Under the pieces are notes generated by a model. The model was not told the origin of the DNA. It did no database searches and was given only the letters and a program-made list of their open reading frames with translations. A program made the position numbers and the translations under genes. A DNA stretch of 35,106 nucleotides from NCBI GenBank assembly GCA_903831455.1, contig CAIKXV010000231.1, forward strand, positions 1 through 35,106. Reading direction: 5' to 3'. Each line of letters begins with the position of its first letter. Position 1 is the stretch's first letter. Of the stretch, positions 12,290 to 32,798 are shown piece after piece. The stretch is from an uncultured Pseudomonadota bacterium. GTDB lineage: Bacteria; Pseudomonadota; Gammaproteobacteria; Burkholderiales; CAIKXV01.

Positions 12290-12315
12290 GGCGGCGGTGC
12301 CCATCGGGTGCCGCC
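12290..12315 (+). other. Intercistronic hairpin between atpA and atpG
   Basis: GGCGGC (12290-12295) pairs with GCCGCC (12310-12315), and the loop can close further through CCC and GGG around ATC. It sits in the 65-base atpA-atpG gap, 27 bases before the atpG start. Confidence 0.4.
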
Positions 12316-12342
12316 CGTCCCCGCCCTGCAGACGAGATCGAG

Positions 12343-14641
<2,299 letters not shown>

Positions 14642-16395: not shown

Positions 16396-16409
16396 CATCG
16401 ATCTCCTGC

Positions 16410-16431
16410 GAGGACGCAATGGTACGTCCTC
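16410..16431. repeat. Inverted repeat in the divergent Bug A / M24 gap, possible operator
   Basis: GAGGACG (16410-16416) and CGTCCTC (16425-16431) are perfect inverted arms separated by eight bases. The repeat is within 40 bases of the Bug A start and about 80 bases upstream of the M24 gene. It could be a regulator-binding site or a hairpin in the Bug A leader. Confidence 0.4.
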
Positions 16432-16510
16432 AGCCCTTACGCGGGTACCCGAGCATGCTCCCGGCCATGACCCTGTTTCCCACTCCGCGCACTCGCCCTG
16501 GAGGTCCCGC

Positions 16511-17689: not shown

Positions 17690-17797
17690 GGGTCGGCCAG
17701 GCTCCGTGCGTCGCGTACCGCGCGCGTGGACGCCGCCCCGCCTGAGCGGCGGACGCGCCTGCCGCCAGGCCGCCGATCCGGGAGGGGGCGGCGCGTC

Positions 17798-18790
17798 TCA
17801 GGAGCCTTCGGCCTTCAGGCCCGCCTGCCGGATCACCGGACCCCAGCGCTCGTACTCGCCGCGGAAGAAGTTCGCGAAGGCCTCGGGCGACATCGGGCGC
17901 AGGATGGCGCCGTCGGCCACGAGTCGACGTTGCACGTCGGGGTCGGCCAGTGCCGCGTTCACCGCGCCATTCAGGCGGGCGACGATTTCGCGAGGTGTCT
18001 TCGGCGGCGCATGCAGCGAATACCAGGTGGTCATGTCATATCCCTTGACCGTCTCGCCGATCGCCGGCACGTCCGGCAGCGCCGTCGATCGGGTGCTCGA
18101 CGCGATGCCGATCGCGCGCAGGCGACCCGCCCGTACGTGCGGCGCACCCGAGGGGATGGTCACGAACATCGACATGACCTGCCCGCCCAGAAGGTCGGCG
18201 ATGGCCGGAGCCCCGCTGCGAAAGGGCACGTGGGTGAGTCGAACGCCGGCGAGCTGCTGCAGCACGACCGCGTTCAGGTGCTGCGACGATCCGACGCCCG
18301 AGGACGCGTAGGTGAGCTCGTCGGGCCGCTGGCGAGCGAGCGCGAGGTACTCCTTCACGCTGCGCACCGGCAGGGAGGGATGCACCATCAGCACGTTGGG
18401 CACCAGCGTGAGCAGCGCCACCTGCGCGAGTTCGCGCGGGTCGTAGGGCAGCCGCTCGAACAGGTAGACGTTGAGCACATGGCTCGACAGGCCGCCGAGC
18501 GTCACCGTGTAGCCGTCCGGCGGCGCCTTCGCACCCGCCTCGGCGCCGATGATGCCCGAGGCCCCGCCCCGGTTGTCGACCACGATGGACGTCCCCAGCG
18601 CCTCGGCCGCGCGCGGCGCGATCACGCGCGAAACAATGTCCGCGGCGCCCCCGGCGGCGAAGGGTACGATCCAGCGGATCGGCTTCACGGGTTTCCAGTC
18701 CTGCGCGATGGCCGAGGACACTCCCGCCAGCATGAGCAGGGCCCCCAGTGCCGGGCGGCACGGGGTCGGACGAGCACTCGGAGCGCGCAT
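17798..18790 (-). CDS. Bug/TctC-family tripartite tricarboxylate transporter substrate-binding protein (B)
   Basis: The roughly 330-residue periplasmic receptor has a Sec signal (hydrophobic ALGALLMLAGVSSAIAQ, cleavage after IAQ or close by). Bug motifs follow: KPIRWIVPFAAGGAAD, PPDGYTVTLG, a THVPFRSGAPAIADLLGG block and the C-terminal RWGPVIRQAGLKAEG. Start 18790 (MRAPSAR) is taken because it gives a normal signal peptide; ATG 18826 is possible, and neither has a clear ribosome site. It is divergent from the threonine aldolase gene and convergent with the M24 gene. It is no closer to Bug A than to other family members by eye, so it is not a recent duplicate. Ligand unknown. Confidence 0.87.
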   Translation of the reverse strand: MRAPSARPTPCRPALGALLMLAGVSSAIAQDWKPVKPIRWIVPFAAGGAADIVSRVIAPRAAEALGTSIVVDNRGGASGIIGAEAGAKAPPDGYTVTLGGLSSHVLNVYLFERLPYDPRELAQVALLTLVPNVLMVHPSLPVRSVKEYLALARQRPDELTYASSGVGSSQHLNAVVLQQLAGVRLTHVPFRSGAPAIADLLGGQVMSMFVTIPSGAPHVRAGRLRAIGIASSTRSTALPDVPAIGETVKGYDMTTWYSLHAPPKTPREIVARLNGAVNAALADPDVQRRLVADGAILRPMSPEAFANFFRGEYERWGPVIRQAGLKAEGS

Positions 18791-18817
18791 GAGGGTGATG
18801 GAGGACAATGCAGGAGG

Positions 18818-18830
18818 CGCTAGCATAGCG
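18818..18830. repeat. Short inverted repeat in the divergent Bug B / threonine aldolase gap
   Basis: CGCTA-GCA-TAGCG is a perfect 5-bp inverted repeat in the roughly 90-base divergent gap. It is a candidate operator only by position. The arms are short enough to occur by chance. Confidence 0.25.
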
Positions 18831-18880
18831 TGGGCCTGTGCCGCACGGCGAGCGCGGTGTGTTCCGGGGAGGGTGCCTGC

Positions 18881-19930
18881 ATGACCGATGTGATCGACCT
18901 GCGCAGCGACACCGTGACCCGGCCGACGCGAGCCATGCTCGACGCGATGGCGAGCGCCACCCAGGGAGACGACGCGCGCGATGGCGACCCGACGGTGCGC
19001 GATCTCGAAGCGCTGGCGGCCTTCCGTACGGGCAAGGCGGCTGCCCTGTTCCTGCCCAGCGGCACCATGGCCAACCTGATCGCGGTGCTGGTGCACGCGC
19101 CGCGGGGCAGCGAGATCGTGATGGAGGCCGGTTCGCACACGCTGGTCTCGGAGGTGGGAGGATTGTCCGCGCTGGCGGGCACGCTGCCGCGACCGCTGCC
19201 GGGTCGGCGCGGTGCGATGGACTACGACAGGCTGCGCGAGGTGATCCGCCGCCCGGGCATTGGCCGGGATCGTGCGGGGACCGGCCTGATCCACCTCGAG
19301 ACCAGCCACAACCAGGCCGGCGGCGCGGTTCTCCCGCTTGCCCATCTGGCGGCGGTACGCGACCTCGCCGATCGCCATGGCGTGCCGGTGCACATCGATG
19401 GCGCGCGTCTGTTCAACGCCGCCGTCGCCCTCGGGGTGGAGGCTGCGGTGATCGCGCAGCACGCCGACTCGGTGTGCTTCTGCCTGTCCAAGGGATTGTC
19501 CGCGCCGGCCGGATCGATGCTCTGCGGGCGCGAGGATTTCATCGAGATCGCGCGCGGCTACCGTCGCATGCTCGGCGGTGGCATGCGCCAGATCGGCGCG
19601 CTGGCCGCCGCCGGCATCGTGGCGCTGGAGCAGATGGTCGATCGCCTCGCCGACGATCACGCCACGGCCCGACAGCTGGCCGAGGGGCTTGCGAGCCTCG
19701 ATCCCGCGCTGGTCGATCCGGCGGCAGTGGAGACCAACCTCGTGCGCGTGGATGTGTCGCGATCCCCGATCGATGCGCAGGCGTGGGCAACCGCGCTAGC
19801 CTCTCGCGGAATACGCGCAGGCGCCTATGGCGATGCGCGCCAGCTGAGGCTCGTCACCCATCGGCATGTCGATCCGGCAGCGATCGAGCGGGTGCTCGAG
19901 GCCGTCCGCAGCCTCCTCGCCAGCCACTGA
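18881..19930 (+). CDS. Low-specificity L-threonine aldolase family protein (PLP-dependent)
   Basis: The 349-residue fold-type I PLP enzyme is of the threonine aldolase/beta-eliminating lyase family, which splits beta-hydroxy-amino acids to glycine and an aldehyde. It shows the opening DLRSDTVTRPT, QGDDARDGDPTV, the SGTMAN phosphate-binding loop (60-65), HIDGARLFNA (171-180) and the Schiff-base Lys204 in LSKGLSAPAGS. The usual aromatic residues in the H-x-x-x-x-E segment are replaced (SHTLVSEVGG, residues 85-94), which may alter substrate choice. GGGGAGGG just before ATG 18881 supports the start. The gene is divergent from Bug B. ltaE is the usual name for E. coli type enzymes, but the specificity here is unproven. 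Confidence 0.9.
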   Translation: MTDVIDLRSDTVTRPTRAMLDAMASATQGDDARDGDPTVRDLEALAAFRTGKAAALFLPSGTMANLIAVLVHAPRGSEIVMEAGSHTLVSEVGGLSALAGTLPRPLPGRRGAMDYDRLREVIRRPGIGRDRAGTGLIHLETSHNQAGGAVLPLAHLAAVRDLADRHGVPVHIDGARLFNAAVALGVEAAVIAQHADSVCFCLSKGLSAPAGSMLCGREDFIEIARGYRRMLGGGMRQIGALAAAGIVALEQMVDRLADDHATARQLAEGLASLDPALVDPAAVETNLVRVDVSRSPIDAQAWATALASRGIRAGAYGDARQLRLVTHRHVDPAAIERVLEAVRSLLASH

Positions 19931-20015: not shown

Positions 20016-20157
20016 ACAGGGCCGAATGCCGTTGCAGGCCTCGACCGCCGGGAGCGGCAGTCGGCTCGCGGCGTGGACCCACGCGACGCTTGTGCGATGG
20101 CCGCGGATCGTCTCTACTGCCGGCTTTGACCGCCCCGCGGGCGCGAGGTCCGACACG

Positions 20158-20643
20158 ATGAGCGACAACCCTTCCACCCGGTTTCATGTCAACGGCGCCG
20201 AGCAGACGGTCTCGGCAGAGCCCGACACGCCCCTGCTCTACATCCTGCGCAACGACCTCGGACTGAAGGGCGCGAAGTTCGGATGCGGGCTGGGCCAGTG
20301 CGGTGCCTGCACGGTACTGCTGGACGGCCATGCCGTAAACGCCTGCGACACGCCGCTATGGGCCGTGGAGGGCAAGTCGGTCACGACGATCGAGGGTCTT
20401 TCGGCGGAGGGCGCGCTGGACGGCCTGCAGCAGGCCTTCGTCGACGAGCAGGCTGTGCAGTGCGGCTACTGCATCCCGGGGATGATCATGTCGGCGACCG
20501 CGCTGCTGCGCCGCGAGCCGCAGGCGACCGGCGAGCAGGTGCGCGCCGCGCTCGAGCGCAACCTGTGCCGCTGCGGCACCCACGCGCGCATCCTGCGCGC
20601 GATCGAACGCGCGATCCACGAGGGCGCCGGGAGGACGGCATGA
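20158..20643 (+). CDS. Molybdenum hydroxylase small subunit, two [2Fe-2S] clusters (IorA-like)
   Basis: The 161-residue electron-transfer subunit belongs to the xanthine oxidase family. The plant-ferredoxin-type cluster is ligated by Cys43, 48, 51 and 63 (GCGLGQCGACTVLLDG then NAC). The second, helical-domain cluster is ligated by Cys102, 105, 137 and 139 (QCGYCIPGM and LCRCGTH). All eight ligands are present. The opening F-x-VNG and the length fit IorA/NicA-type subunits. The ATG of the large subunit overlaps its stop (ATGA), so the two are translationally coupled. It is probably cytoplasmic or exported with the partner. Confidence 0.93.
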   Translation: MSDNPSTRFHVNGAEQTVSAEPDTPLLYILRNDLGLKGAKFGCGLGQCGACTVLLDGHAVNACDTPLWAVEGKSVTTIEGLSAEGALDGLQQAFVDEQAVQCGYCIPGMIMSATALLRREPQATGEQVRAALERNLCRCGTHARILRAIERAIHEGAGRTA

Positions 20644-22781
20644 CTGCGCCCGTGCTTCCGCTGTGGCTGAACACCAACCGGCGACTCGATCGCTGGGTGC
20701 GATTCGACGAGGACGGTCGCGCAACCATCCTCACCGGTCGCGTCGAGTACGGGCAGGGGGCGATCACCGCGCTCGCGCAGATCGCAGCCGAGGAACTGGA
20801 CCTCGATCTCGAGCAGGTGCGCATCATCGGCGGCGACACCGAACTCACGCCCGATGAAGGCCACACCTCGGGCAGTCGCTCGATGGACGAAGGCGGTACG
20901 GCCCTGCGCACGGCGTGCGCCGAGGCACGCGCGGTGCTGCTGGCCGAGGCGGCGCGCAGGCTCGATCTGCCCGTCGAACGCCTGCAGGTGGAGCAGGGGC
21001 GGATCGGGGGTGCCGACCGTACCCGCGAGATCAGCTACTGGGATCTGCCCCATCGCGAACTGCTCGCGCGCGAGGCCACCGGGCTCGTCCAGCCGAAGCC
21101 GGCGAACCGCTACACCGTGGTCGGTCGCAGCGCGCCGCGGCGGGATATCCCCGGCAAGGTGGCGGGACGGCCGACCTTCGTCGCCGACCTGGTGCAACCG
21201 GGCATGCTCCACGGGCGCGTCGTTCGACCGCCCTCGGAGGGCGCCCGTCTGCTCTCGTTCGACGAGGCGGCGATCCGCGCGCTGCCGGGCGTGGTGGCGG
21301 TGGTGCGCGACGGCGACTTCCTCGGGGTGGTCGCCGAGCGCGAGGAGCAGGCGGTCCGGGCGCGCCGCGCGGCGATCGCGGCGGCGCACTGGCAGGAGCC
21401 GGGGCTGCCCGTGGACGCCGACGGCATCCACGCGTTCCTCGAGGCGGCACAGACCACCGACACGGTCATCGTCGAGCGCCGCGACGAGGCTGCGCGTGCG
21501 CGGGGAGTGACCCGGCTTCAGGCGCAGTATGGCAAGCCCTACATCGCGCACGCGTCGATCGGTCCGTCCAGTGCGCTCGCGCGGTGGGACGCGAATCCGG
21601 ACCGGGTCGAAATCTGGACCCACAGCCAGGGGGTCTATCCGCTCGTGCGGGAGATCGCCCAGATCCTCGGCCTGCCGACCGCCTCGGTCGTCGCGCACCA
21701 TGTCGACGGGCCTGGCTGTTACGGACACAACGGCGCCGACGACGCGGCCTTCGATGCGGTGCTGCTCGCGCGCGCGGTGCCCGGGCGGCCGGTGATGCTG
21801 CAGTGGATGCGTGACGACGAGTTCGCCTGGGAGCCGCTCGGCCCGGCGATGCGCGTGAAGACGGCGGCTTCGCTCGATGCCGACGGCCGGATCGTCGACT
21901 GGCAGCTCGACCTGTGGAGCAACGGGCACAGCCAGCGCTCGGGGATGGTGAAGACCGACTACCCGAATGCCACGCTGCTGGCTGCATGGCATCTCGCGCA
22001 GCCGGTGGCACGCATGCCCCAGGGCGATCCGCTGATGGCCGGGGGCGGCGGCATGGCTCGCAATGGCGAGGTCCTGTACGACCTTCCCAACCAGAAGGTG
22101 GTTGCACACCGGGTCGAGGAACTGCCCCTGCGGGTGTCGACGCTGCGCGCGCTGGGCGCCTACGCGAACGTGTTTGCCGCCGAGTCGTTCATGGACGAGC
22201 TCGCGCAAGCCGCGGGCGAGGATCCGGTGGCCTTTCGCCTGAAGCACCTGTCCGATCCGCGCGCGCGCGCAGTCATCGAGCGCGCGGCCGACGCGTCAGG
22301 CTGGGTGCCCAATGCACCGAGCGACGGGATCCGTGGGCGTGGGATCGGCTTTGCGCGATACAAGAACGGCTACGGCTACATGGCCGTGGTCGCGCAGGTC
22401 ACCCTCGAGCCCGATTTCCGGGTGACGCGCGTCGTGGCGGCGATCGATGTCGGGCTCGCGATCAACCCCGACGGCATCATCAACCAGACCGAAGGCGGCA
22501 TCATCCAGTCGTTGAGCTGGACGCTGTGCGAGGCGGTCCGCTTCGATCGCGAACGCATCCTGTCGCGCGACTGGGAAACCTATCCGATCCTCACCTTCGC
22601 CGGCGTACCCGAGGTGGAGGTGCATCTGATCAACCGCCCCGAGGAGCCACCGCTCGGCGGTGGCGAGAACCCGACCGGCCCGACGGCCGCCGCCGTGGGC
22701 AATGCGCTCGCGCACGCGCTGGGGGTCCGCGTGCGCGACCTGCCGCTTACGCGCGAGCGGATCGTGGCGGCGATGGGTTGA
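20640..22781 (+). CDS. Molybdenum hydroxylase large subunit, molybdopterin-binding (IorB-like)
   Basis: The 713-residue catalytic subunit should hydroxylate a substrate, often an N-heterocycle or aldehyde, using water. Its N-terminus carries the segment VEYGQGAITALAQIAAEELD and GDTELTPDEGHTSGSRS. In xanthine dehydrogenases this lies far downstream, so the domain order is the permuted isoquinoline 1-oxidoreductase type. The C-terminal GGGENPTGP...AVGNALAHALG supplies the expected catalytic Glu, at about residue 676. No twin-arginine signal is seen, although many IorB proteins have one. There is no FAD subunit, c-type cytochrome, XdhC or MoCo chaperone nearby, so the electron acceptor is not encoded here. 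The gene converges on the DUF35 gene across 103 bases. Confidence 0.9.
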   Translation: MTAPVLPLWLNTNRRLDRWVRFDEDGRATILTGRVEYGQGAITALAQIAAEELDLDLEQVRIIGGDTELTPDEGHTSGSRSMDEGGTALRTACAEARAVLLAEAARRLDLPVERLQVEQGRIGGADRTREISYWDLPHRELLAREATGLVQPKPANRYTVVGRSAPRRDIPGKVAGRPTFVADLVQPGMLHGRVVRPPSEGARLLSFDEAAIRALPGVVAVVRDGDFLGVVAEREEQAVRARRAAIAAAHWQEPGLPVDADGIHAFLEAAQTTDTVIVERRDEAARARGVTRLQAQYGKPYIAHASIGPSSALARWDANPDRVEIWTHSQGVYPLVREIAQILGLPTASVVAHHVDGPGCYGHNGADDAAFDAVLLARAVPGRPVMLQWMRDDEFAWEPLGPAMRVKTAASLDADGRIVDWQLDLWSNGHSQRSGMVKTDYPNATLLAAWHLAQPVARMPQGDPLMAGGGGMARNGEVLYDLPNQKVVAHRVEELPLRVSTLRALGAYANVFAAESFMDELAQAAGEDPVAFRLKHLSDPRARAVIERAADASGWVPNAPSDGIRGRGIGFARYKNGYGYMAVVAQVTLEPDFRVTRVVAAIDVGLAINPDGIINQTEGGIIQSLSWTLCEAVRFDRERILSRDWETYPILTFAGVPEVEVHLINRPEEPPLGGGENPTGPTAAAVGNALAHALGVRVRDLPLTRERIVAAMG

Positions 22782-22884: not shown

Positions 22885-23298
22885 TCAGGCCGGCGTGAAC
22901 TTCGGCACGCCCACGCCTTCGCCGACCGTCTCGTACACCGCCCTGACCGGCAGGCCGATGCGTACTGCATCGGCGGCGCAGCCGATCACGTTGCTCATCA
23001 GGCGACCACCGTCCTCGAGCGCGACGATGGCGATCACGTAGGGCAGTTCGGCGCGGAAGGCCGGGTCGGGCGCGCGGTGCACCACGGTGTACGAGAACAC
23101 CGTGCCTCGGCCCGAAGCCTCGACCCACTCGAGCCGAGTGCAGCCGCAGCCGCACGCGGCGCGGGTGGGCGTGAAGCGCGCGCCGCAAGCAGTGCAGGCA
23201 CGCAGTCGCAGGCGGCCTTCGGCGCAGGCGGCCCAGAACGGCGCGGTCGCATCGCCCGGCGACGGAGACGGCTTGGCGGGGATAGGGGTATCGCTCAT
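22885..23298 (-). CDS. Zn-ribbon/OB-fold protein (DUF35 family), partner of the adjacent thiolase-like protein
   Basis: The 137-residue product has a rubredoxin-like zinc ribbon with Cys pairs C-x2-C (CTACG) and C-x-C (CGCGC) near residues 35-53. An OB-fold follows, with the usual G-x-V-x-SYTVVHR and PYVIAIVALEDGGRLMSN segments. DUF35 proteins bind acyl-CoA and pair with thiolase-fold partners, for example ChsH2-DUF35 with the aldolase Ltp2 in steroid side-chain degradation. The thiolase-like gene lies 10 bases upstream, which supports a complex. It is the last gene of the minus-strand operon. Confidence 0.9.
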   Translation of the reverse strand: MSDTPIPAKPSPSPGDATAPFWAACAEGRLRLRACTACGARFTPTRAACGCGCTRLEWVEASGRGTVFSYTVVHRAPDPAFRAELPYVIAIVALEDGGRLMSNVIGCAADAVRIGLPVRAVYETVGEGVGVPKFTPA

Positions 23299-23308
23299 GC
23301 GCGTCTCC

Positions 23309-24463
23309 TCACTTGCCCAGGATCATGGTGACGGCCAGCGCCATCGGGCCACCGATGCCGTGCGCGAGGGCCAGCTCGGCCCCGGCGACCTGATTGATGC
23401 CGGCATCGCCGCGCACCTGGCGCACCGCCTCGGGCAGCACGATCACGTGCGCGTTGCCCCAGGTGAGCATGCCGCCGGTGGTGTTGGTGGGAATCGATCC
23501 GCCCAGCGCGGTATCGCCGCCGGCGAACAGCGCCCCGCCGGCACCGGGCTCGCAGAACCCGAGGTCTTCCATCGCGATCAGCGCTGCGATGGTGAACGCG
23601 TCGAAGACCTGCGCGGTGTCGATGTCCGACGGCTTCACTCCCGCGATGCCGAAGGCGGCCTGCGCCGACTGGCGGGTTGCGGCCGGCGGCAGGTCGTCGA
23701 TGTCCGCGAGGTGGTAGGGCGAATGTCCCTCCCCCGCGCCGAGCAGCCGCACCACCGGCGGGCGCAGGTCGCGCGCGCGCTCGACGGTGGTGACCAGGAC
23801 CGCGCCGCCCCAGTCGGCCACCGGGCAGCAGTCGAGCGCGTGCAGGGGCGAGGCGATCATCGCCGAGCCCAGCACCTTGTCGACGGTGAGCGGATCCTTG
23901 CGCGGGGCGTGCGGCTGGCGCATCGCATGCTGGCGAGCGGCGACGGCCACCGCGGCGAGATCCTCGGGGCGACCGCCGAAGCGGTGCATCCAGCGTTGCG
24001 CCACCAGCGCGTACTTGCCGGGCACGGTCAGCCCGAACGGATCTTCCCAGTCGTCCGTCCACGGCCGCGCGGCTCGCATCGCCTGGATCTTGTCGCCCTT
24101 GAACTTCGCGCCGCGGCTGTCGCTCTCGCAGACCAGGACGGTGTGCGCGTCGCCGGCGGCGATGGCGCGTGCGGCGTACAGCACCCCCATCCCCGGCGAG
24201 GCGCCTGCGGCCTGGATCGCCATGTTGACCCGGGCCGGGATATTGAGCGCCTCGGCCACGAGGGTACTGAACATGAAGTGCGGGTCTCCCGCCGGGCTGG
24301 CGGTGATGACCCCGTCGACTTCGCGCGGGCTCACCCCCGCATCGGCCATCGCGGCCAACCCCGCTTCGACCGCGAGATCCTGGGCGGTGCGTACCTGCGT
24401 GGTGGAGATGGCCGCTTCGCCGACCCCGGCGATGGCGATCCGTCCGTACATCGACTGCGTCAT
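23309..24463 (-). CDS. Thiolase-fold protein lacking thiolase catalytic residues, possible Ltp2-like CoA aldolase
   Basis: The 384-residue product has the thiolase/SCP-x architecture, with an N-terminal half up to about 240 and the C-terminal half from about 265 (PSDIDTAQVFDAFT). The nucleophile loop reads NMAIQAAGASPG (80-91) and there is no Cys before residue 112. The NPSGG...GHP-x-G motif is replaced by NTTGGMLTWGNAH. The C-terminal CxG motif becomes HGIGGPM. All three thiolase elements are therefore gone, so Claisen chemistry is unlikely. Thiolase-fold proteins of this kind with a DUF35 partner include Ltp2-type retro-aldolases acting on beta-hydroxyacyl-CoAs. The gene is co-transcribed with the DUF35 gene and the carboxylase genes. 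Automatic naming as acetyl-CoA acetyltransferase would mislead. Confidence 0.85.
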   Translation of the reverse strand: MTQSMYGRIAIAGVGEAAISTTQVRTAQDLAVEAGLAAMADAGVSPREVDGVITASPAGDPHFMFSTLVAEALNIPARVNMAIQAAGASPGMGVLYAARAIAAGDAHTVLVCESDSRGAKFKGDKIQAMRAARPWTDDWEDPFGLTVPGKYALVAQRWMHRFGGRPEDLAAVAVAARQHAMRQPHAPRKDPLTVDKVLGSAMIASPLHALDCCPVADWGGAVLVTTVERARDLRPPVVRLLGAGEGHSPYHLADIDDLPPAATRQSAQAAFGIAGVKPSDIDTAQVFDAFTIAALIAMEDLGFCEPGAGGALFAGGDTALGGSIPTNTTGGMLTWGNAHVIVLPEAVRQVRGDAGINQVAGAELALAHGIGGPMALAVTMILGK

Positions 24464-24524
24464 GGTTGGGTGGGGTCCTGTACGAATGAGGAGGGTGAAG
24501 GAAACCGATGCGCGAGGCGCGCGC

Positions 24525-26009
24525 TCAGCGCCCGCCGCGCTCGGCGACGGCGGCTGAGCGACCCAGCGTCAGGGTGAAGCCCGGCCGGCTGATATGGACG
24601 GTGCTGCGCCCGGCGCGCCGCGACAGGGTGTCGAGGATATCGATGAGTGCATCGCCCCCGGTGTCGATCTCGTGGATCGGTCGTGACTCGGCGCGCATCC
24701 GGGCGATGTCCTCGCGCCGGAGGAGATGACGGAACAGGACCTCTTCCTCGGGAAGGTCCACCGCGTCCAGATCGCGCCGGATCTCGGCCTCCGAGCGCTG
24801 CTCGGTGACGATCGCAGCGAGTTCGCGGGCCCGCGGTCGATCGAGGATGCGTGCGCGCACGCCGGCGTCCATCAGCTGCTCGACGTCGCCGCCGAAGTGG
24901 CCGAGCGCGTAGCGGATCGTCTGGTCGGTCACCTGTGCATAGCGATCGCCGGTCATCACGTTCACGGCCGCCTGGGTGCCGACGAACTGCGACAGCGGCG
25001 TGACCATGATCGGGAAACCGAACTCCTCGCGCACCCGGACGGTCTCCTCGAGCGCGGCAGGCAGTCGATCCTCGGCACCGACCTCGCGCAGCTGGTTGCG
25101 CAGGTTGGAGATCATGCCGCCGGGCACCTGGTGGACGTATTGCGCGTAGTCGTAGGCGGCAGGCTGGCCGATCGGGAAGCCCTCCCGTTCGGCGATCTTC
25201 CGGAAGTGGGCCTCCACCGGCTGCAGCAAGGCCTCGTCCACGGGCGTCGCATAGCCCATCGCCCGCAGGTTGGCCGCGACGTTGAACACCGAGGGCAGCG
25301 ACGCGTCGTCGGCCAGCGGCGGGATCGCGGTGTTGACGATGCGGATGCCCCGGCGCACGGCCTCGAGCACGCACAGCGGCCCGAGTCCGGTCAGGCAGTG
25401 GGTGTGGATCTCGAGGGGAATGTCGCCCGCGGCCTCCCTCATCAGGGGCACCAGCTCCGCGGTGCGCTCCGGCGTGAGCAGCCCGCCGGGATCCTTCAGG
25501 CAGATGCGCCACGGCGCGAGCGCGGCGGCCGCCCGGGTCCGCGACGCGTAGTAGGCGTTGTCGTGCCGCGGGGAGATCGAGTAGGTGACGTTGATGATCG
25601 GGCGCACCCCGGCCGCTGCCGCCGCTCCGGCCCGGCGCTTCCAGACCGCCGGGTCGTTCCACGAATCCGAGACGCGCACCTCGCCGATGCCGGCTCGCGC
25701 CATCACGCGCCAGAACAGCTCGACCATCGATTGCTGGTCGGTGCCGAACAGGTTCAGCCCACCGGCGTTGATCCGCAGGGGCGTGCGCCCCCCGCGTTCG
25801 CGCAGCAGCCGCACGCGCTCGATCGGATCCTCGCGCAGGTCGCGCACGCACTTGCCGATGAACGATGGCGCGAGCACTTCGATCGCGCCAAACCCTGCGC
25901 GATCGAGCGCGTCGATCACCGGCAGCATCATGCCGGTGGTCATGTGCTCGGCCCAGAGGCTCTGCTGCCCGTCGCGAAGCGTCACGTCGACGAATTCGAT
26001 CCGTTCCAT
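24525..26009 (-). CDS. Biotin-dependent carboxyltransferase of the oxaloacetate decarboxylase alpha / PycB family
   Basis: The 494-residue product has an HMGL-like TIM barrel followed by a conserved carboxylase (PYC/OADA) domain. Expected metal-site residues are present: Asp8 in DVTLRDGQQS, the carbamylation Lys172 in CLKDPGGLL, and His202 and His204 in EIHTHC. Typical PycB/OadA proteins are near 570-600 residues with a C-terminal biotinyl domain. Here the chain ends without one, and no MKM site is seen. The carrier must be the separate protein encoded upstream. No OadB/OadG sodium pump is present. GGAG six bases before ATG 26009 favours this start over ATG 26021. Substrate could be pyruvate or another oxo- or acyl-compound. 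Confidence 0.9.
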   Translation of the reverse strand: MERIEFVDVTLRDGQQSLWAEHMTTGMMLPVIDALDRAGFGAIEVLAPSFIGKCVRDLREDPIERVRLLRERGGRTPLRINAGGLNLFGTDQQSMVELFWRVMARAGIGEVRVSDSWNDPAVWKRRAGAAAAAGVRPIINVTYSISPRHDNAYYASRTRAAAALAPWRICLKDPGGLLTPERTAELVPLMREAAGDIPLEIHTHCLTGLGPLCVLEAVRRGIRIVNTAIPPLADDASLPSVFNVAANLRAMGYATPVDEALLQPVEAHFRKIAEREGFPIGQPAAYDYAQYVHQVPGGMISNLRNQLREVGAEDRLPAALEETVRVREEFGFPIMVTPLSQFVGTQAAVNVMTGDRYAQVTDQTIRYALGHFGGDVEQLMDAGVRARILDRPRARELAAIVTEQRSEAEIRRDLDAVDLPEEEVLFRHLLRREDIARMRAESRPIHEIDTGGDALIDILDTLSRRAGRSTVHISRPGFTLTLGRSAAVAERGGR

Positions 26010-26048
26010 CCCGTTCTCCATCCGCCGTATCCCGGCGAGGCGACATGC

Positions 26049-27418
<1,370 letters not shown>

Positions 27419-27422
<4 letters not shown>

Positions 27423-27949
27423 GCGGGCCGGACCCTGAAGAGAACCTGTCCGTATTCGACCAGCGAGGCGTCCTGCGCACAGACCTGCGCGATGGTGCCG
27501 CTGACACCGGCGTGCACCGCGTTGAACATCTTCATCGCTTCGACGAGGCAGACGGTCGCGTCCGGATCGACGCGTGCGCCGACCGTCACATAGGGGGCCG
27601 CGCCCGGCTCGGGCTGCGAATAGAAGCGCCCGATCATCGGCGAGACGATGTCGACCAGCCCGGGTTCGGGCGCGGGTTCGACCGCGCTGCCCGCGGCAGG
27701 GGCGGAGGCGGGCGCAGCCACCGGTGCGGCAGCGGCGGGTGTCGGCGCGGTTGCAGCGGCCAGCGCAGGGCTGGGGGCGGGAGCCGCCGCGACGACGCCC
27801 GGAAGAACGACCCCGTCGCGGGCAACCGTGACCCGCAGGTCGCCGAGTTCGAGTTGCAGGTAGTCGAAGCTCGAGTGCTCGAGCGTCTCGATGATGCGAC
27901 CGATCCGTCGCACTTCGTCGTCGGTCAGGGGGATCTCGGGTTTGCTCAT
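27419..27949 (-). CDS. Free-standing biotin carboxyl carrier protein (AccB-like)
   Basis: The 176-residue product has an AccB-type N-terminal segment (DEVRRIGRIIETLEHSSFDY ... LGDLRVTVAR), a long Ala/Pro-rich flexible linker (about 52-96) and a C-terminal biotinyl domain. The biotin attachment site is Lys140 in EAMKM. It can swing between the biotin carboxylase and carboxyltransferase encoded just downstream. The start at 27949 has AGGAG about 11 bases upstream. The overlap with the carboxylase gene indicates coupled synthesis. Confidence 0.92.
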
Positions 27950-28063
27950 GACCGGGTCATCTCCTGCAGGCAGTCGGTCGATCGTTGCGGCCCCGCGAGG
28001 TACTGCATGCGATCGGGGCCGGAGGCTGCGCCACGCGGCGGCGCGCAAGCCGGTGCGATGGGG

Positions 28064-28756
28064 TCACCGGCGCAACACGGCGCCGCCGGCGGCACGCTCC
28101 GGGACCTCGAGTTCCGCGCACCCGGGCGCGATGCCCAGGGGCGCACCCGTGGCCGCCCGGATCTCGTCCACGCCATGGCCGGGCGCGAGGGCGCGCAGCA
28201 CGAACCCCGCAGGGGTCACGTCGACCACCGCGAGATCGGTGTACACGCGCTTGACGCAGGCGCGCGCGGTGAGCGGCGCCGTGCAGCGCTCGACGAGCTT
28301 CGGCGCGCCCTTGTTGGTGAGATGGGTCATCGCGACGTAGACGTTGCGCGCGCCCACCGCGAGATCCATCGCGCCCCCGACGCCGGGCATGGCCTCGCCA
28401 GGTACGCGCCAGTTGGCGAAGTCGCCGTTCGCGGCGACTTCGATGCCGCCGAGGATCGCGTGGGTGAGGTGTCCCCCGCGCATCATCGTGAACGACACCT
28501 GCTGGTCGAAGATCGAGGCGCCGGGCATCAGGGTGCAGAAGCCCTTGCCGGCGCTGATGAGGTCGAGGTCGACCTCGCCGGCCGCGGGGGGTGGCCCCAC
28601 GCCGAGGATGCCGTTCTCGCTGTGGAGGAAGACCTCGCGCGTGCGGTCGAGGTGGCTCGCCACCAGCACCGGCATGCCGACGCCGAGGTTCACGTAGGCG
28701 CCCTCGGGCAGGTCGCGCGCGATGCACCAGGCGATGCCCTCGCGGGTGAGGCTCAT
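28064..28756 (-). CDS. 3-oxoacid CoA-transferase subunit B
   Basis: The 230-residue beta subunit of a class I CoA-transferase (ScoB/AtoA/PcaJ/CatJ type) moves CoA from succinyl-CoA or acetyl-CoA to an acid. The opening LTREGIAWCIARDLPEGAYVNLGVGMP and the catalytic Glu in SENGILGVGP (about residues 47-56) are present, as are GGHLTHAILGG and the GAMDLAVGA block. Its ATG overlaps the stop of the subunit A gene. Subunit A is frameshifted in this sequence, so the enzyme may not be made unless the shift is an error or is bypassed. Substrate is not predictable from sequence. Confidence 0.92.
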   Translation of the reverse strand: MSLTREGIAWCIARDLPEGAYVNLGVGMPVLVASHLDRTREVFLHSENGILGVGPPPAAGEVDLDLISAGKGFCTLMPGASIFDQQVSFTMMRGGHLTHAILGGIEVAANGDFANWRVPGEAMPGVGGAMDLAVGARNVYVAMTHLTNKGAPKLVERCTAPLTARACVKRVYTDLAVVDVTPAGFVLRALAPGHGVDEIRAATGAPLGIAPGCAELEVPERAAGGAVLRR

Positions 28757-29452
28757 GCGCCCTCCTTCGGGACTTCGAGCAGCTTCGGGTGCCGGTCGAC
28801 CTCGACCACGTGGTCGACGAAGATGCCGGGCGTGTGCACCTGCTCGGGCGGTATCCCGCCGACCTCGACCATCCGGTCGACCTCGGCGATGACGACTTCG
28901 CCCGCCGTCGCCATCACCATGTTGAAGTTGCGCATCGTGCCGCGGTACATCAGGTTGCCGAGGCGATCGCCGAGGTGCCCCTTGAGGAACACGAAGTCCG
29001 CGCGCAGCGGCGTCTCGAACAGGTACTCTCGACCGTCGATCGTCCGCACCTCCTTGCCTGCGGCCAGTTCGGTGCCCGCGCCGACCGGGGGTGTAGAAGC
29101 CGCCCAGTCCGGTTCCCGCCGCGCGGATGCGCTCGACCAGGGTGCCCTGGGGCACGAGTTCGAGTTCGATCTCGCCCTTGAGATAACGATCACGGAACTG
29201 CGCGGCCGAAGGCGCGGGGAACGAGGCGACGAGCTTGCGCACCAGGCCGTCGCCGAACAGTGCGCCCAGCGCGAACGGACCGGTCCCCGCGCCGTTGCTC
29301 ACGATGGTGAGGTTGCGGGCGCCCCGCTCGCGCAACGCCTCGATCAGCCGCGCCGGCATGCCGGCGTTGCCGAAGCCGCCGAACATGAGTGTCGCGCCAT
29401 CGAAAACCCTGCCAACCGCTTCACGACAGTCGGCCACACGCTTGTCGACCAC
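28753..29452 (-). pseudogene. 3-oxoacid CoA-transferase subunit A, +1 frameshift in a C5 run
   Basis: The N-terminal part starts at GTG 29452 (GGAGG just upstream) and has DGATLMFGGFGNAGMPARLI and SNGAGTGPFALG, which include the CoA-binding elements. It reads correctly to GLGGFYTP. From there the true continuation (VGAGTELAAGKEVRTIDG through HPKLLEVPKEGA) lies in another frame. One extra base in the run of five G at 29087-29091 (C on the coding strand) explains this. With four bases the gene would encode about 232 residues, the normal length. No stop occurs in the unshifted frame, which continues straight into subunit B in frame. It is either a sequencing error, a recent mutation or a slippage site. 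Confidence 0.85.
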
Positions 29453-29524
29453 GCTGGCCTCCTCCGTGCCCGTGTTGATCGTGCTGCGGATGCGACCGGG
29501 CTTCGTCCACCCGGTCCTCGTGAC

Positions 29525-29552
29525 TTGACATGTCGCATGCACGCCGTGAAAT
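29525..29552 (+). promoter_or_regulatory. Putative sigma70 promoter for the Bug C-D-E genes
   Basis: A perfect TTGACA (29525-29530) precedes TGAAAT (29547-29552) with a 16-bp spacer. AATACT at 29550 with a 19-bp spacer is an alternative. An 8-bp palindrome GACATGTC (29527-29534) overlaps the -35 and could be an operator. It lies in the 228-base divergent gap between the CoA-transferase operon and Bug C. Confidence 0.45.
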
Positions 29553-29680
29553 ACTACACCCGTCATGTGAGACACGACCAGAGCAGGTCGAGCCGCCGCG
29601 CAGTCTCCTGCTGGCCGGCTGCAGACTCGCCACGCGGGAGACAGAACACGATGTCGAGCAGCACGATCGAGGAGCCGCGC

Positions 29681-30688
29681 ATGCCGGGCCGCGTTTGCGC
29701 GGGATCAGTCCGGGCCAGCGCCCGCCGGCGTGCCGCCGCGGTGCTGGCGCTTGCGGCATGGCCGGTGTCCGCTGCGCTCGCGCAGCCCGCAGCCTATCCC
29801 TCCAAGCCGGTCACGCTGGTGCTGCCCTTCGGCGCAGGCGGGCTGATCGACATCCAGGGCCGGCTGATCGCCGCCGGACTCTCCGCGCGGTTCGGGCAAG
29901 CCTTCGTGGCGCGCAACATGCCCGGGGCCACTGGCGCGATCGCCACCGAATACGTCGCGAGGGCGGCACCGGACGGCTATACCCTGCTGTTCGCCTCCTC
30001 GGCGCAGACCACCAGCGTGCCGCTGGTCGACAAGGTGAACTATCGGCTGGAGGACCTCGTCCCGGTCAGTGCCTCGAGCCGCAGTTCGCTGATCCTCGCG
30101 ATCAACGCGCAGGTACCGGCGCGCAACCTCCAGGAATTCATCGACTACGCGCGCGGCAATCCCGGCAAGCTCAACTACGGGTCCTCCGGCGAGGCCTCGG
30201 TCTCGCACCTGACCGGCGCGCTCTTCGGGGCTCGCGCCGGCCTCAAGCTCACGCATGTGCCCTACAAGGGCGGCGGCCAGGCGGTGACCGATCTCATGGG
30301 CGGGCAGATCCCGATGCTGTTCGGCAACTCGGGCGAGATCCTGGCCAATGCAAAGAACGAACGCATCCGGATCCTCGCCGTTTCCACCGCGAAGCGGCTT
30401 CGCCAGTTGCCGTCGGTGCCGACGGTCGGCGAAGTGCTGCCCAACTTCGAGGTGACGGCCTGGCAGGGCACGCTCGCGCCCGCCAGGACACCCCGGCCGA
30501 TCGTCGATGCGTTGTCCTCGGCGCTGCAGGCGCTATCGAAGGACCCGGCCATCATCGAGCGCATGGAGCAGTTCGGCGTCGAGGCCATCGTCACCACGCC
30601 CGAGCAGATGGCCGCGATGATCAAGGCCGAGCTTCCGGTGTACGCGGAGGCGGTGAAGGCGGCGGGTCTGGGCCGGGCCTCTCCCTGA
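29681..30688 (+). CDS. Bug/TctC-family tripartite tricarboxylate transporter substrate-binding protein (C)
   Basis: The roughly 335-residue exported receptor has a basic n-region with RRR, a hydrophobic core (AAAVLALAAWPVSAALA) and mature start near QPAAYPSKPV. Family motifs: LVLPFGAGGLIDIQGR, RNMPGATGAIATEYV, PDGYTLLFASS, THVPYKGGG and MGGQIPMLFGNSGE. GAGGAG at 29669-29674, six bases before ATG 29681, favours this start; ATG 29651 is also in frame. The usual G-x-T/S-D ligand-loop residues read GGLID, so a Leu/Ile replaces the small polar pair. It is the first of three plus-strand Bug genes and is divergent from the CoA-transferase/carboxylase operon, so it is a candidate receptor for that operon's substrate. 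Confidence 0.88.
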   Translation: MPGRVCAGSVRASARRRAAAVLALAAWPVSAALAQPAAYPSKPVTLVLPFGAGGLIDIQGRLIAAGLSARFGQAFVARNMPGATGAIATEYVARAAPDGYTLLFASSAQTTSVPLVDKVNYRLEDLVPVSASSRSSLILAINAQVPARNLQEFIDYARGNPGKLNYGSSGEASVSHLTGALFGARAGLKLTHVPYKGGGQAVTDLMGGQIPMLFGNSGEILANAKNERIRILAVSTAKRLRQLPSVPTVGEVLPNFEVTAWQGTLAPARTPRPIVDALSSALQALSKDPAIIERMEQFGVEAIVTTPEQMAAMIKAELPVYAEAVKAAGLGRASP

Positions 30689-30795
30689 GGATCCCGGTCT
30701 CGAGGGCACCCCTGCCCGCGCAGCCCCGGCCGGCGCGGGCACCAGGGGCCTTCGGGGTCGGACACATCGACGTGACCGGGATGACGGAGGTGGCG

Positions 30796-31779
30796 ATGCC
30801 GGGTCCAACACGAAGCGGGTGCGCGATGGCGGTGGTCGGCCTGGTGGCATGGGCATCGGCGGTCGACCCGCTGCGCGCCCAGCCTGCCGCGGCATGGCCG
30901 GCCAAGCCAGTGACGGTGGTCATCCCCTACGCGCCAGGCGGCACCACGGATATCCAGGCGCGGCTCGTGGCGGCCGGACTGTCCTCCCGGCTGGGGCAGT
31001 CGTTCGTGCCTCGCAACATGCCCGGTGCCACCGGCGCGATCGCCACCGAATTCGTGACCCGGGCGAACGCCGACGGCTACACCCTGCTGTTCGCCTCCTC
31101 GGCCCAGACGACCAGCGTGCCGATGACCGACAAGGTGGGTTATCGGGTCGAGGACCTCGCTCCGGTGAGCGTGTTCGGACGGGGTGCGATGGTGCTGGCG
31201 ATCCACGCCCAGGTGCCGGCGCGCGGATTGCGCGAGTTCATCGACTACGCGCGGTCGACGAAGGGGCGCCTCAACTACGCATCGCCGGGCGAGGGTTCGG
31301 TCGGCCATCTGGTGGCGGCGCTGTTCCTTGCCCGCGCCGGCATCGAGATGGTGCACGTCCCCTACAAGGGGGGTGGTCCCGCGATGGCCGACCTCATCGG
31401 CGGCCAGGTGCCGATGCTGTTCGGCAACTCCGGCGAAGTGATGACGCAGGCCAAGAACGAACGCATCCGCATCCTGGCGGTCTCCACCGCGCAGCGGCTC
31501 AGGAGCGCGCCGAACATCCCGACCGTGGCCGAGGTGCTGCCCGGCTTCGAGATGACCGCCTGGCAGGGCATGATGGCCCCGGTCAGGACGCCGCGAGCGA
31601 TCGTGGACGCCCTCTCGACGGCCATCCAGGCGATCGCCCGCGAACCCGCGATCGTCGAGCGCCTGGAGCAACTCGGCATCGAGCCGATGGGCACCACGCC
31701 CGAGCAGATGGCCACGATCATCCGGGCCGAGAACCCGGTGTACGCGGAGGCGATCCGCGCGGCCGGGCTCGCGCGATGA
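30796..31779 (+). CDS. Bug/TctC-family tripartite tricarboxylate transporter substrate-binding protein (D), paralogue of C
   Basis: The 327-residue exported receptor has its start at 30796 set by GGAGG five bases upstream; ATG 30781 is the alternative. The signal region ends near DPLRAQ. It shares long blocks with Bug C: RNMPGATGAIATE, DGYTLLFASSAQTTSVP, VPMLFGNSGE and AKNERIRILAVSTA. This makes the two a tandem duplication. At the ligand loop it reads PGGTTDIQAR, the normal GG-T-T-D, unlike GGLID in C, so the copies may bind different acids. Its stop overlaps the start of the next Bug gene (ATGA). Confidence 0.9.
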   Translation: MPGPTRSGCAMAVVGLVAWASAVDPLRAQPAAAWPAKPVTVVIPYAPGGTTDIQARLVAAGLSSRLGQSFVPRNMPGATGAIATEFVTRANADGYTLLFASSAQTTSVPMTDKVGYRVEDLAPVSVFGRGAMVLAIHAQVPARGLREFIDYARSTKGRLNYASPGEGSVGHLVAALFLARAGIEMVHVPYKGGGPAMADLIGGQVPMLFGNSGEVMTQAKNERIRILAVSTAQRLRSAPNIPTVAEVLPGFEMTAWQGMMAPVRTPRAIVDALSTAIQAIAREPAIVERLEQLGIEPMGTTPEQMATIIRAENPVYAEAIRAAGLAR

Positions 31780-32798
31780 GCCCTGCGGTGTCCGCGGGTG
31801 TCCGACGCTCCGGACCGATCGCCGCGGGGTATCGGATCGGGATGACGGCGCCCGTGATGCTGGCGGTGACGCTGGCGGCCGCTGGCGGGTCGGCGCTCGC
31901 GGGCTGGCCCGATCGCCCGCTGCGGATCGTGGTGCCCTTTCCCGCAGGTGGCAGCACCGATGCGGTCGCCCGCCTGAGCGCCGAGTGGATGGCGCGCAGT
32001 CTCGGGCAGCCGGTGACCGTGGAGAACCGGACGGGGGCAAGTGGCACGATCGCCGCCGAGTTCGTCGCGCAGGCGGCACCCGACGGGCACACGCTGTTCA
32101 TGGCCTCGCTCGCCCAGTTGTCCATCGTCCCGCAGATGGGCAAGGTGCGATACGACCCGTTTCGCAGCTTCGCGCCGGTGACGGTGGTCTCGCGCAGCTA
32201 CTTCGCGCTGGGCGTCCACCCCAGCCTGCCGGCCCGCGACGTGAAGCAGCTGGTGGCGCTGGCCCGCGCCCGCCCGGGGGAACTGGCCTACGGCTCCTCG
32301 GGCAACGGGTCGGCCGCCCACCTCACGATGGCGCTGTTCCTGCAGCGCGCGGGCATCACGATGACGCACATTCCCTACAAGGGCGTGGCCCCGGCAATCG
32401 CCGACCTGGTGGGCGGGCATGTGCCGATGGTGTTCGGCAGCGTCTCCGAGGTCCTGCGCTACTACAAGGCGGGCAAGCTGCGGGTGCTGGGCGTGTCGAG
32501 CGAGCGCCGCCTGTCGCAGATGCCTGAAGTGCCGACCGTGGCCGAGCAGGGGTACCCCGGCTACGTGGTCACGACCTGGAACGGCCTCGTCGCGCCCGCC
32601 GCGACCCCCGAAAACCTCCTCGCGGCGCTGGGCGGCGCGCTGCGCCCGGCCTGTCGCGACAGCGGTTTCGCCGGCCGGCTCGCCGCCATGGATGCGGAAC
32701 CCTGGTGCAGTTCGCCCGCCGAGTTCACCGAGATGCTCAAGGCCGACTGGGCCCGCTGGGGGGATGCAGTCCGGCACTCGGGGGCCCGGCTCGAGTGA
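31776..32798 (+). CDS. Bug/TctC-family tripartite tricarboxylate transporter substrate-binding protein (E)
   Basis: The 340-residue exported receptor starts at an ATG overlapping the stop of Bug D; ATG 31842 would give a shorter signal peptide. The hydrophobic core APVMLAVTLAAAGGSALA is followed by mature GWPDRPLRIVVPFPAGGSTDAV. Other motifs are PDGHTLFMAS, THIPYKG and a DLVGGHVPMVFG block. It is clearly more distant from C and D than they are from each other. Two Cys in the C-terminal part (ACRD and WCSS) could form a disulfide. It is the last gene of the accessory block. Confidence 0.88.
   Translation: MSPAVSAGVRRSGPIAAGYRIGMTAPVMLAVTLAAAGGSALAGWPDRPLRIVVPFPAGGSTDAVARLSAEWMARSLGQPVTVENRTGASGTIAAEFVAQAAPDGHTLFMASLAQLSIVPQMGKVRYDPFRSFAPVTVVSRSYFALGVHPSLPARDVKQLVALARARPGELAYGSSGNGSAAHLTMALFLQRAGITMTHIPYKGVAPAIADLVGGHVPMVFGSVSEVLRYYKAGKLRVLGVSSERRLSQMPEVPTVAEQGYPGYVVTTWNGLVAPAATPENLLAALGGALRPACRDSGFAGRLAAMDAEPWCSSPAEFTEMLKADWARWGDAVRHSGARLE

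What the first reader, a model, noticed from the sequence alone, without database searches (positions are those of the whole stretch)
22885..29452. Operon combining CoA-transferase, a three-piece hybrid biotin carboxylase and a non-canonical thiolase/DUF35 pair
Seven minus-strand genes are close or overlapping: CoA-transferase A and B, AccB-like carrier, AccC-like carboxylase, a PycB/OadA-type carboxyltransferase lacking its own biotinyl domain, a thiolase-fold protein and DUF35. Known pyruvate carboxylases of the split type carry biotin on PycB, and Na+-pumping decarboxylases have OadB/G. Acyl-CoA carboxylases use a different carboxyltransferase. This combination matches none of these. Inference: a CoA-activated acid is carboxylated and/or cleaved to pyruvate- or oxaloacetate-level products.
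Basis: partly seen in the sequence, partly recalled or inferred. Interest (0 to 1): 0.75.

Follow-up and report, generated by a model that had tools for sequence, protein, structure and literature searches.

The report
Biotin carboxylase operon, likely ketone-type
Seven linked bacterial genes look like a pathway that uses biotin to add CO2 to a small carbonyl compound other than pyruvate and then breaks the product down; it is a new variant of a known kind of enzyme, and its relatives hint at a large unexplored set of such enzymes.

Summary
The seven-gene operon is real and in the stated order, except that CtfA is frameshifted in a CCCCC run. The complete order is in 4 of 11 same-genus genomes, and contig-cut copies are in 3 more. 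The carboxyltransferase (CT) does not look like a pyruvate enzyme. It lies outside 18 PycB/OadA-type CTs (support 100) and lacks their RGQNxxGY block (18 of 18 have it; 0 of the 106 other CTs that cover it). It belongs to a large sister group that also holds CTs from clusters laid out like the known Hpe/Acv/Xcc ketone carboxylases. So 'matches none' is too strong, and the pyruvate/oxaloacetate product is not supported. Most likely a carbonyl compound is carboxylated to a 3-oxoacid and CtfAB makes the CoA ester. The thiolase-fold/DUF35 pair lacks the aligned thiolase Cys and His and the known aldolase residues (same pattern in 6 of 6 copies); its chemistry is unknown. Ten related genomes hold 78 such CTs (2-16 each) but 18 detected carrier proteins and about one dedicated biotin carboxylase each, so one carrier/carboxylase pair may serve many CTs. 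All function is inferred; the substrate is unknown.

The parts
28753..29452 (-). 3-oxoacid CoA-transferase subunit A (CtfA), GTG start at 29452, frameshifted
   Evidence: N half in ORF 28064-29575, C half in ORF 28753-29193; the two pieces are 69-83% identical to five same-genus copies, L135 and L136
29087..29091 (.). five-base run (CCCCC on the coding strand) at which the CtfA frame changes
   Evidence: the two halves are in one frame in 7 of 7 relatives
28064..28756 (-). 3-oxoacid CoA-transferase subunit B (CtfB)
   Evidence: TIGR02428 270.7 bits, cut-off 243.55; best solved chains are 3-oxoacid CoA-transferases
27419..27949 (-). biotin carboxyl carrier protein (BCCP), biotin Lys in EAMKM
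   Evidence: TIGR00531 121.4 bits, cut-off 115.2; Lys140
26049..27422 (-). biotin carboxylase (BC)
   Evidence: NF006367 634.4 bits, cut-off 597; groups with other CT-linked BCs, basal support weak (44)
24525..26021 (-). HMGL/PycB-type carboxyltransferase (CT), 498 aa, no biotinyl domain, pyruvate block lost
   Evidence: PF02436 and PF00682; predicted fold nearest 5ks8, 2nx9, 1rqh; tree; residues
23309..24463 (-). thiolase-fold protein without the aligned nucleophilic Cys, partner of DUF35
   Evidence: PF22691; Foldseek nearest 4u4e, 9myr (Sal), 6ok1 (Ltp2), then the thiolase 7yvy; motif table
22885..23298 (-). DUF35 / ChsH2-type zinc-ribbon OB-fold protein
   Evidence: PF01796 91.7 bits, PF12172 24 bits against a cut-off of 23.2; nearest solved chains 6ok1_B and 9myr_B
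29681..30688 (+). TctC/Bug solute receptor, divergent from CtfA (start is one possible ATG)
   Evidence: a TctC hit lies on the opposite strand beside CtfA in 6 of 6 loci that reach that side (window, L037, L038, L039, L041, L042)

Best explanation
A catabolic module built round a three-subunit, ATP- and biotin-dependent carboxylase. BC carboxylates the biotin on BCCP, and the CT moves the carboxyl group to the carbon next to a carbonyl of a substrate other than pyruvate (a ketone or a different oxo compound), giving a 3-oxoacid. CtfAB moves CoA onto that acid. The thiolase-fold/DUF35 pair then makes or breaks a C-C bond of the CoA ester with a remodelled active site, or other thiolases finish the job. 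Shown: gene content, linkage, intact CT metal/Lys/Thr residues, loss of the pyruvate block, loss of the thiolase residues. Inferred: substrate class, order of steps, and every activity.
For: The CT keeps the metal ligands (D17, H206, H208), the Lys (K176) and the essential Thr (T341) (residue roles recalled, except Thr882, called catalytically essential in a PMC5895798 passage). It lacks RGQNxxGY, present in 18 of 18 pyruvate-type CTs and in 0 of the 106 others that cover the block. It is outside the pyruvate clade at support 100. The same large group holds CTs of clusters with the Hpe gene layout, such as L057: two kinase-like genes, BCCP, BC, CT, HAD, acetoacetate-CoA-ligase-like, amidohydrolase. 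HpeCBA carboxylates phospho-acetovanillone and phospho-acetophenone (PMC9618137). Cnuibacter L063 has CT-accB-accC-BioY-CtfA-CtfB-thiolase, the same logic with a thiolase that keeps its Cys. CtfB is of the 3-oxoacid type. In ten related genomes 8 of 12 CtfB genes lie within 2 kb of such a CT, 7 of them on the same strand, against 0.22 expected within 4 kb.
Against: No direct evidence of substrate. Arg548 and Gln552 of R. etli pyruvate carboxylase, named in PMC10653868 (passage) as allowing pyruvate binding, are kept (R16, Q20); but both are also kept in all 27 other rows, which include the Hpe-type CTs, so they do not discriminate. The window CT is not inside the Hpe-type subclades; the node joining them has support 94. 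No Hpe-type kinase, phosphatase or amidohydrolase was found in the window or in six same-genus loci, three of which are only 5.5-8.8 kb long. The window thiolase-fold protein has no Cys at the nucleophile site, so ordinary thiolysis is unlikely. The TctC neighbours suggest a carboxylate substrate, which sits less well with a simple ketone.
Confidence: 0.55

Rival explanations
1. Reverse order: CtfAB activates an imported hydroxy- or branched acid, the thiolase-fold/DUF35 pair cleaves it by a retro-aldol-like step to acetyl- or propionyl-CoA plus a ketone, and the carboxylase then carboxylates that ketone.
For: Of the characterised proteins, the thiolase-fold protein is nearest to the retro-aldolases Sal and Ltp2 by sequence and fold. 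Relatives without the aligned Cys sit beside a CT in five loci (L136, L177, L184, L185, L198), three of them with CtfAB too (L136, L185, L198). CaiB plus citryl-CoA-lyase-like genes flank CTs in L151, L159 and L160, another CoA-transfer plus lyase pairing.
Against: The window protein lacks the aldolase residues too: the Tyr of YDHF/YDCF is Phe287 (FDAF), the His/Cys two residues on is Ala289, and the GHP/Tyr344 region is GNA with a 4-residue deletion (PMC12329534 passages).
Confidence: 0.22
2. An unusual split pyruvate carboxylase (anaplerosis) with a separate carrier, in an operon with unrelated CoA genes.
For: Fold is nearest to pyruvate carboxylase, OadA and 5S. No PEP carboxylase (PF00311) and no other PYC_OADA protein was found in the own genome. 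Arg548 and Gln552 equivalents are kept.
Against: Outside the pyruvate clade; the RGQNxxGY block is rebuilt and two residues shorter. Four of 11 same-genus genomes show no operon CT, and two of these (G003, G010) have no CT at E<=1e-40 although 97-100% complete.
Confidence: 0.1
3. The CT carboxylates a CoA thioester that CtfAB makes first: a new acyl-CoA carboxylase using a PycB-type CT.
For: CoA-transferase genes recur beside these CTs: CtfAB beside 8 and CaiB beside 4 of 75.
Against: No characterised HMGL-type CT is known to me (recalled) to take a CoA ester; HpeCBA acts on phosphorylated free ketones (PMC9618137).
Confidence: 0.08
4. These HMGL-type proteins are lyases or aldolases, not carboxyltransferases.
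For: Most relatives have no BC or BCCP nearby (32 of 33 with at least 3 kb on both sides). In 9 of 27 other rows the CT lysine is replaced.
Against: Lys and Thr are kept in 75 of 75 aligned paralogs of the ten genomes; in the window genus BCCP and BC are inside the operon.
Confidence: 0.05

Closest known systems
Hpe / Acv / Xcc hydroxyacetophenone carboxylases (Rhodococcus GD02, Sphingobium SYK-6, Aromatoleum EbN1)
   Same: Three separate subunits BCCP, BC, CT; the window CT is 37-38% identical to CTs of Hpe-like clusters L057 and L054; CoA activation and C-C cleavage downstream
   Different: No kinase, phosphatase or amidohydrolase found nearby; CtfAB instead of a CoA ligase; CT in a different subclade; thiolase-fold/DUF35 pair without the aligned Cys. 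The Hpe, Acv and Xcc sequences themselves were not held
PycB of split pyruvate carboxylase, OadA, transcarboxylase 5S
   Same: CT fold and metal/Lys/Thr residues; 5S also lacks a biotinyl domain (recalled)
   Different: RGQNxxGY block lost; separate clade from PycB/OadA (5S was not in the tree)
Sal-Shy and Ltp2-ChsH2 DUF35 aldolases
   Same: Nearest characterised fold and sequence for the thiolase-fold/DUF35 pair; no nucleophilic Cys
   Different: Catalytic Tyr and second residue replaced (FDAF), 4-residue deletion at GHP
Acetone and acetophenone carboxylases
   Same: Same overall logic: ketone to 3-oxoacid, later cleaved (start of abstract of PMC7888143 and of PMC5214803, search listings)
   Different: Biotin-independent and unrelated proteins (recalled)
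Cnuibacter physcomitrellae plasmid cluster (L063)
   Same: CT, accB, accC, CtfA, CtfB, thiolase together
   Different: Thiolase with its Cys, no DUF35 annotated, CT 41% identical over 381 residues and in another subclade

Membership tests
Hpe/Acv/Xcc carboxylase pathway | Separate BCCP, BC and HMGL-type CT encoded together | tested here: met
Hpe/Acv/Xcc carboxylase pathway | CT in the same subclade as CTs of Hpe-type clusters | tested here: not met
   window in its own 8-row subgroup (100); shares only the wider 84-row group, support 94. Characterised Hpe/Acv/Xcc CTs themselves not in the tree
Hpe/Acv/Xcc carboxylase pathway | Adjacent two-part kinase and phosphatase | tested here: not met
   no hit at E<=1e-5 in window or six same-genus loci
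Hpe/Acv/Xcc carboxylase pathway | Carboxylates phospho-hydroxyacetophenones | not testable with these tools
   Needs enzyme assay
Split pyruvate carboxylase (PycA/PycB) or OadA | CT inside the PycB/OadA clade with the pyruvate block | tested here: not met
Split pyruvate carboxylase (PycA/PycB) or OadA | Biotinyl domain on the CT chain | tested here: not met
   no Biotin_lipoyl in the 498-aa CT
Thiolase (acetyl-CoA acetyltransferase) | Nucleophilic Cys, HEAF/HDAF His and GHP His at the aligned sites | tested here: not met
   none of the three, while Rhodococcus L054/L058 keep them. In 4 of 6 close copies (not the window's) a Cys stands four residues after the aligned site
Sal/Ltp2 DUF35 aldolase | Catalytic Tyr in YDHF/YDCY and a second Tyr or Cys | tested here: not met
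   and PMC12329534 passages: FDAF and GNA
Sal/Ltp2 DUF35 aldolase | Thiolase-fold subunit paired with a DUF35 protein | tested here: met
   Adjacent genes of both families; complex formation not testable here
3-oxoacid CoA-transferase (PcaIJ/ScoAB) | Subunit B above the family model's cut-off, with subunit A beside it | tested here: met
   for CtfB (TIGR02428); CtfA by similarity to relatives, frameshifted in the window and intact in relatives

The most novel reading that the evidence does not exclude
A combinatorial carboxylation kit: in many bacteria one BC/BCCP pair serves up to about 16 exchangeable PycB-type carboxyltransferases, each in its own catabolic operon and each specific for a different non-pyruvate carbonyl compound. 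The window operon is the version that carries its own BC and BCCP, coupled to a new thiolase-fold/DUF35 C-C bond enzyme that has lost the known thiolase and aldolase residues.
Probability: 0.4. Interest if true: 0.75.

Novelty: new variant of a known kind. Interest (0 to 1): 0.55.

Why it matters
Plasmid genes of this group are annotated as pyruvate carboxylase subunit B, carboxyltransferase, biotin carboxyl carrier protein or hypothetical protein. If they are ketone-type carboxylases, genome-based carbon models give them the wrong reaction, and a large set of CO2-adding catabolic enzymes is unexplored. The thiolase-fold protein that has lost the known catalytic residues, yet is conserved with the carboxylase, poses a sharp and testable enzymology question.

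Tried and rejected
Pyruvate carboxylase/OadA membership: rejected on the tree and the block. Five of the 18 pyruvate-type rows (L202-L206) were put in that group after I had seen their block; the tree groups all 18 at support 100. Which window residues stand for the Arg and Tyr of the block depends on the alignment: Gly87 and Thr94 in the pairwise one, a gap and Phe92 in the multiple one.

Thiolase function in the strict sense: rejected on residues, with the caveat that 4 of 6 close copies have a Cys four residues after the aligned site; the window and L020 do not. Sal/Ltp2-type aldolase by the known mechanism: rejected on residues; a related reaction is not excluded. The predicted models are not confident at the key sites: thiolase-fold residues 119-145 and 330-336, CT residues 88-93 and 286-302 have pLDDT under 50.

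Hpe pathway proper: rejected for lack of kinase/phosphatase and for CT subclade.

Isocitrate lyase search in the own genome gave four partial hits of 47-62 bits, which say nothing on anaplerosis. Class-wide search: 1 of 369 genomes (the window's own) at E<=1e-110. Paper searches for the combination: 0 papers, 0 papers, 4 papers, none on this by title and start of abstract. They cover only open-licence PMC text.

UbiD marker hits near 11 of 75 CTs were not followed up. The CT tree used the quick method; L065 and some others are long branches whose places are unsure, and one row (L184, under 360 residues) was left out. The basal split of the BC tree is weak (44). In one search three of 78 CT places were left out because no locus was mapped to them (one of these had in fact been fetched as L211). 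The genome-wide counts used 11 of the 15 loci. In 18 of 83 CT matches a stop codon is read; in all 18 it lies within the last 13 codons of the match.
Full report
The observation. Translation and family searches confirm seven minus-strand genes between 22885 and 29452. The order of transcription is CtfA, CtfB, BCCP, BC, CT, thiolase-fold, DUF35, with overlaps of 4 bp at CtfA/CtfB and BCCP/BC. In 7 of 7 relatives in which both halves were found they are in one frame, so the break is a sequencing error or recent.

Conservation. Among 11 same-genus genomes, the window's own included (G000-G010), the operon CT is found in 7. The full seven-gene order is in G000, G001, G002 and G005. In G009, G006 and G007 the operon is cut by contig ends but agrees as far as it goes. 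G003, G004 and G010 have no CT at E<=1e-40, and G008 has only a distant one (40%). A different genome (G467, locus L136; it also holds L003, titled Betaproteobacteria) has CtfA-CtfB-CT-thiolase-DUF35 in the same order, at 64-76% identity for CtfA, CtfB, CT and the thiolase-fold gene and 59% over 49 residues of a DUF35 gene cut by the contig end. It has no BCCP or BC inside. L135 (G468) has CtfA-CtfB-CT. In an even sample of 369 genomes of the class only the own genome matched at E<=1e-110. A TctC receptor hit stands on the opposite strand beside CtfA in 6 of 6 loci that reach that side.

The carboxyltransferase. Its fold is that of the pyruvate carboxylase/OadA/5S CT (model pLDDT 79.5; nearest 5ks8, 2nx9, 1rqh). 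A tree of 124 CTs puts the 18 PycB/OadA-type rows on one side of a branch with support 100 and the other 106 on the other (quick method, SH-aLRT only). The window row sits in an 8-row subgroup (100) inside a 71-row group (100). That group joins the CTs of Hpe-like clusters, which form two clades, at a node of support 94. The catalytic residues stay: R16, D17, K176, H206, H208, T341. In the paralogs of the ten related genomes the Lys, both His and the Thr are kept in 75 of 75; in 27 further rows (plasmids and other genomes) the Lys is kept in 18 and the Thr in 24. The block RGQNxxGY is in 18 of 18 pyruvate-type CTs and in 0 of the 106 others that cover it; in the window it reads GGLNLFGT. That its Arg and Tyr are Arg621 and Tyr628 of R. 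etli pyruvate carboxylase is recalled; 4jx6 is titled as the Y628A CT domain with pyruvate. Against this, Arg548 and Gln552, named in PMC10653868 (passage) as allowing pyruvate binding, are kept, as they are in the Hpe-type rows.

The known relatives. PMC9618137 (abstract, sections 5 and 11 and passages) reports that HpeCBA, a carrier/CT/BC enzyme, carboxylates 4-phospho-acetovanillone and 4-phospho-acetophenone. It states that XccBCA of Aromatoleum aromaticum EbN1 and the Acv enzyme of Sphingobium SYK-6 are homologous. PMC13101465 (passages) says that kinase and carboxylase genes were clustered in only 52 of 836 cases, so carboxylase homologs without a kinase were already on record. Among plasmids (30 records matched; I opened 14 of them, less two stretches used only as OadA comparators), Rhizobium L057 has the Hpe layout. 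Rhodococcus L054 and L058 have PEP-utilising and PPDK-type genes, BCCP, BC, CT, DUF35, thiolase and phosphatase. Cnuibacter L063 has CT, accB, accC, CtfA, CtfB and thiolase. I did not hold the Hpe, Acv or Xcc sequences; the link is by gene layout and by the paper.

The thiolase-fold/DUF35 pair. By sequence and fold the nearest solved chains are 4u4e (putative thiolase), 9myr (Sal-Shy aldolase) and 6ok1 (Ltp2-ChsH2 aldolase), with the thiolase 7yvy close behind. The Rhodococcus pair keeps the thiolase Cys, His and GHP. The window protein has GAS for the Cys site, FDAF for HDAF and GNA with four residues deleted for GHP. PMC12329534 (passages) names Tyr302 and Cys304 (YDCY) for Sal and Tyr294 and Tyr344 for Ltp2; the window has Phe and Ala at the first motif and the deletion near the second. 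FDAF and the deletion are in 6 of 6 close copies (five same-genus and L136, 72% identical), which argues for selection and not decay. In 4 of these 6, not in the window's, a Cys stands four residues after the aligned Cys site. Ten relatives at 38-43% identity have YDCF (9) or YDSF (1). So the window pair is neither a thiolase nor an aldolase by a known mechanism.

Wider pattern. Eleven of the 15 loci lie in ten genomes (G466-G475; record titles: Deltaproteobacteria, Betaproteobacteria, Syntrophobacter, Actinobacteria, Acidimicrobiaceae). They hold 83 CT places at E<=1e-60. Five of these are pyruvate-type, leaving 78: 16, 11, 10, 10, 9, 7, 5, 4, 4 and 2 per genome (some are fragments at contig ends). 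BCCPs detected at E<=1e-6 number 18, one each in 7 of 10 genomes; three of the 18 lie beside a housekeeping-like BC. The 18 is a lower bound, since in those 7 genomes the single hit leaves no separate housekeeping carrier, which must have been missed or be the same protein. BCs at E<=1e-100 are 2-3 per genome in 9 of 10; one of them, 56-68% identical to the window's, occurs once in each of the 9 (in G467 a 273-residue piece at a contig end), and G471 has none at that level. Of 75 CT places with a mapped locus, 5 have BC and 10 have BC or BCCP within 4 kb; of 33 with at least 3 kb on both sides, 32 have neither. Either one carrier pair serves many CTs or the orphans are not carboxylases; the kept Lys and Thr favour the first.

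Neighbours of these CTs. Of 75 CT places, 8 have CtfAB within 4 kb, 4 CaiB, 4 a citryl-CoA-lyase-like gene, 6 a thiolase-fold gene, 4 DUF35 and 13 an amidohydrolase (markers are single reference proteins, phmmer E 1e-8; one gene can count for two CTs). Of 12 CtfB genes in the ten genomes, 8 lie within 2 kb of a CT, 7 on the same strand, against 0.22 expected within 4 kb (binomial P about 6e-12). Shared ancestry makes that P only a guide. The other four were looked at and have no CT on the stretch held. The amidohydrolases are 39-44% identical to those of the Hpe-like clusters L057 and L059. In L057 it stands where HpeF would be; that HpeF is an amidohydrolase is recalled, not tested. HpeF is proposed to be a beta-ketoacyl-CoA hydrolase in PMC9618137, which would fit 3-oxoacyl-CoA intermediates, though the window operon has no such gene.

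Conclusion. Most likely a biotin-dependent carboxylase of the Hpe/Acv/Xcc kind acting on a non-pyruvate carbonyl compound, feeding CtfAB and an unusual thiolase-fold/DUF35 enzyme. Substrate and order of steps are open.

Noticed in passing
window 20026-22781: Small (2Fe-2S) and large (molybdopterin) subunits of a xanthine-dehydrogenase-type enzyme, convergent with the operon.
   Followed up: partly
window 15370-19795 and 27125-32795 (open frames): Five TctC/Bug receptor hits around the operon and the molybdenum enzyme.
   Followed up: partly
L046 (G083:C5) 7508-14230: Three CT-like genes in tandem with a BCCP and a PPDK-type protein; in all three the CT lysine is Tyr.
   Followed up: partly
L054 8950-10449 and L058 8953-10452: Rhodococcus plasmid CTs carry Glu in place of the CT lysine.
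   Followed up: no
L151, L159, L160; L055, L065: CaiB CoA-transferase and citryl-CoA-lyase-like genes beside CTs in three loci; citryl-CoA-lyase genes within 9 kb of CTs on two Sulfitobacter plasmids, with a CoA-transferase in L055.
   Followed up: no
L138, L140, L141, L143: Two CTs with an amidohydrolase between them, in four genomes.
   Followed up: no
10 genomes G466-G475: UbiD-marker hits within 4 kb of 11 of 75 CTs.
   Followed up: no
G000 (own genome): No PEP carboxylase (PF00311) and no second PYC_OADA protein found.
   Followed up: partly
PMC9618137 passage against L057: The paper calls HpeB (49.3 kDa) the carboxyltransferase and HpeA (57.4 kDa) the biotin carboxylase; gene order and protein sizes in L057 (BC about 460 aa, then CT about 490 aa) suggest the two labels may be swapped. 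My inference only.
   Followed up: no
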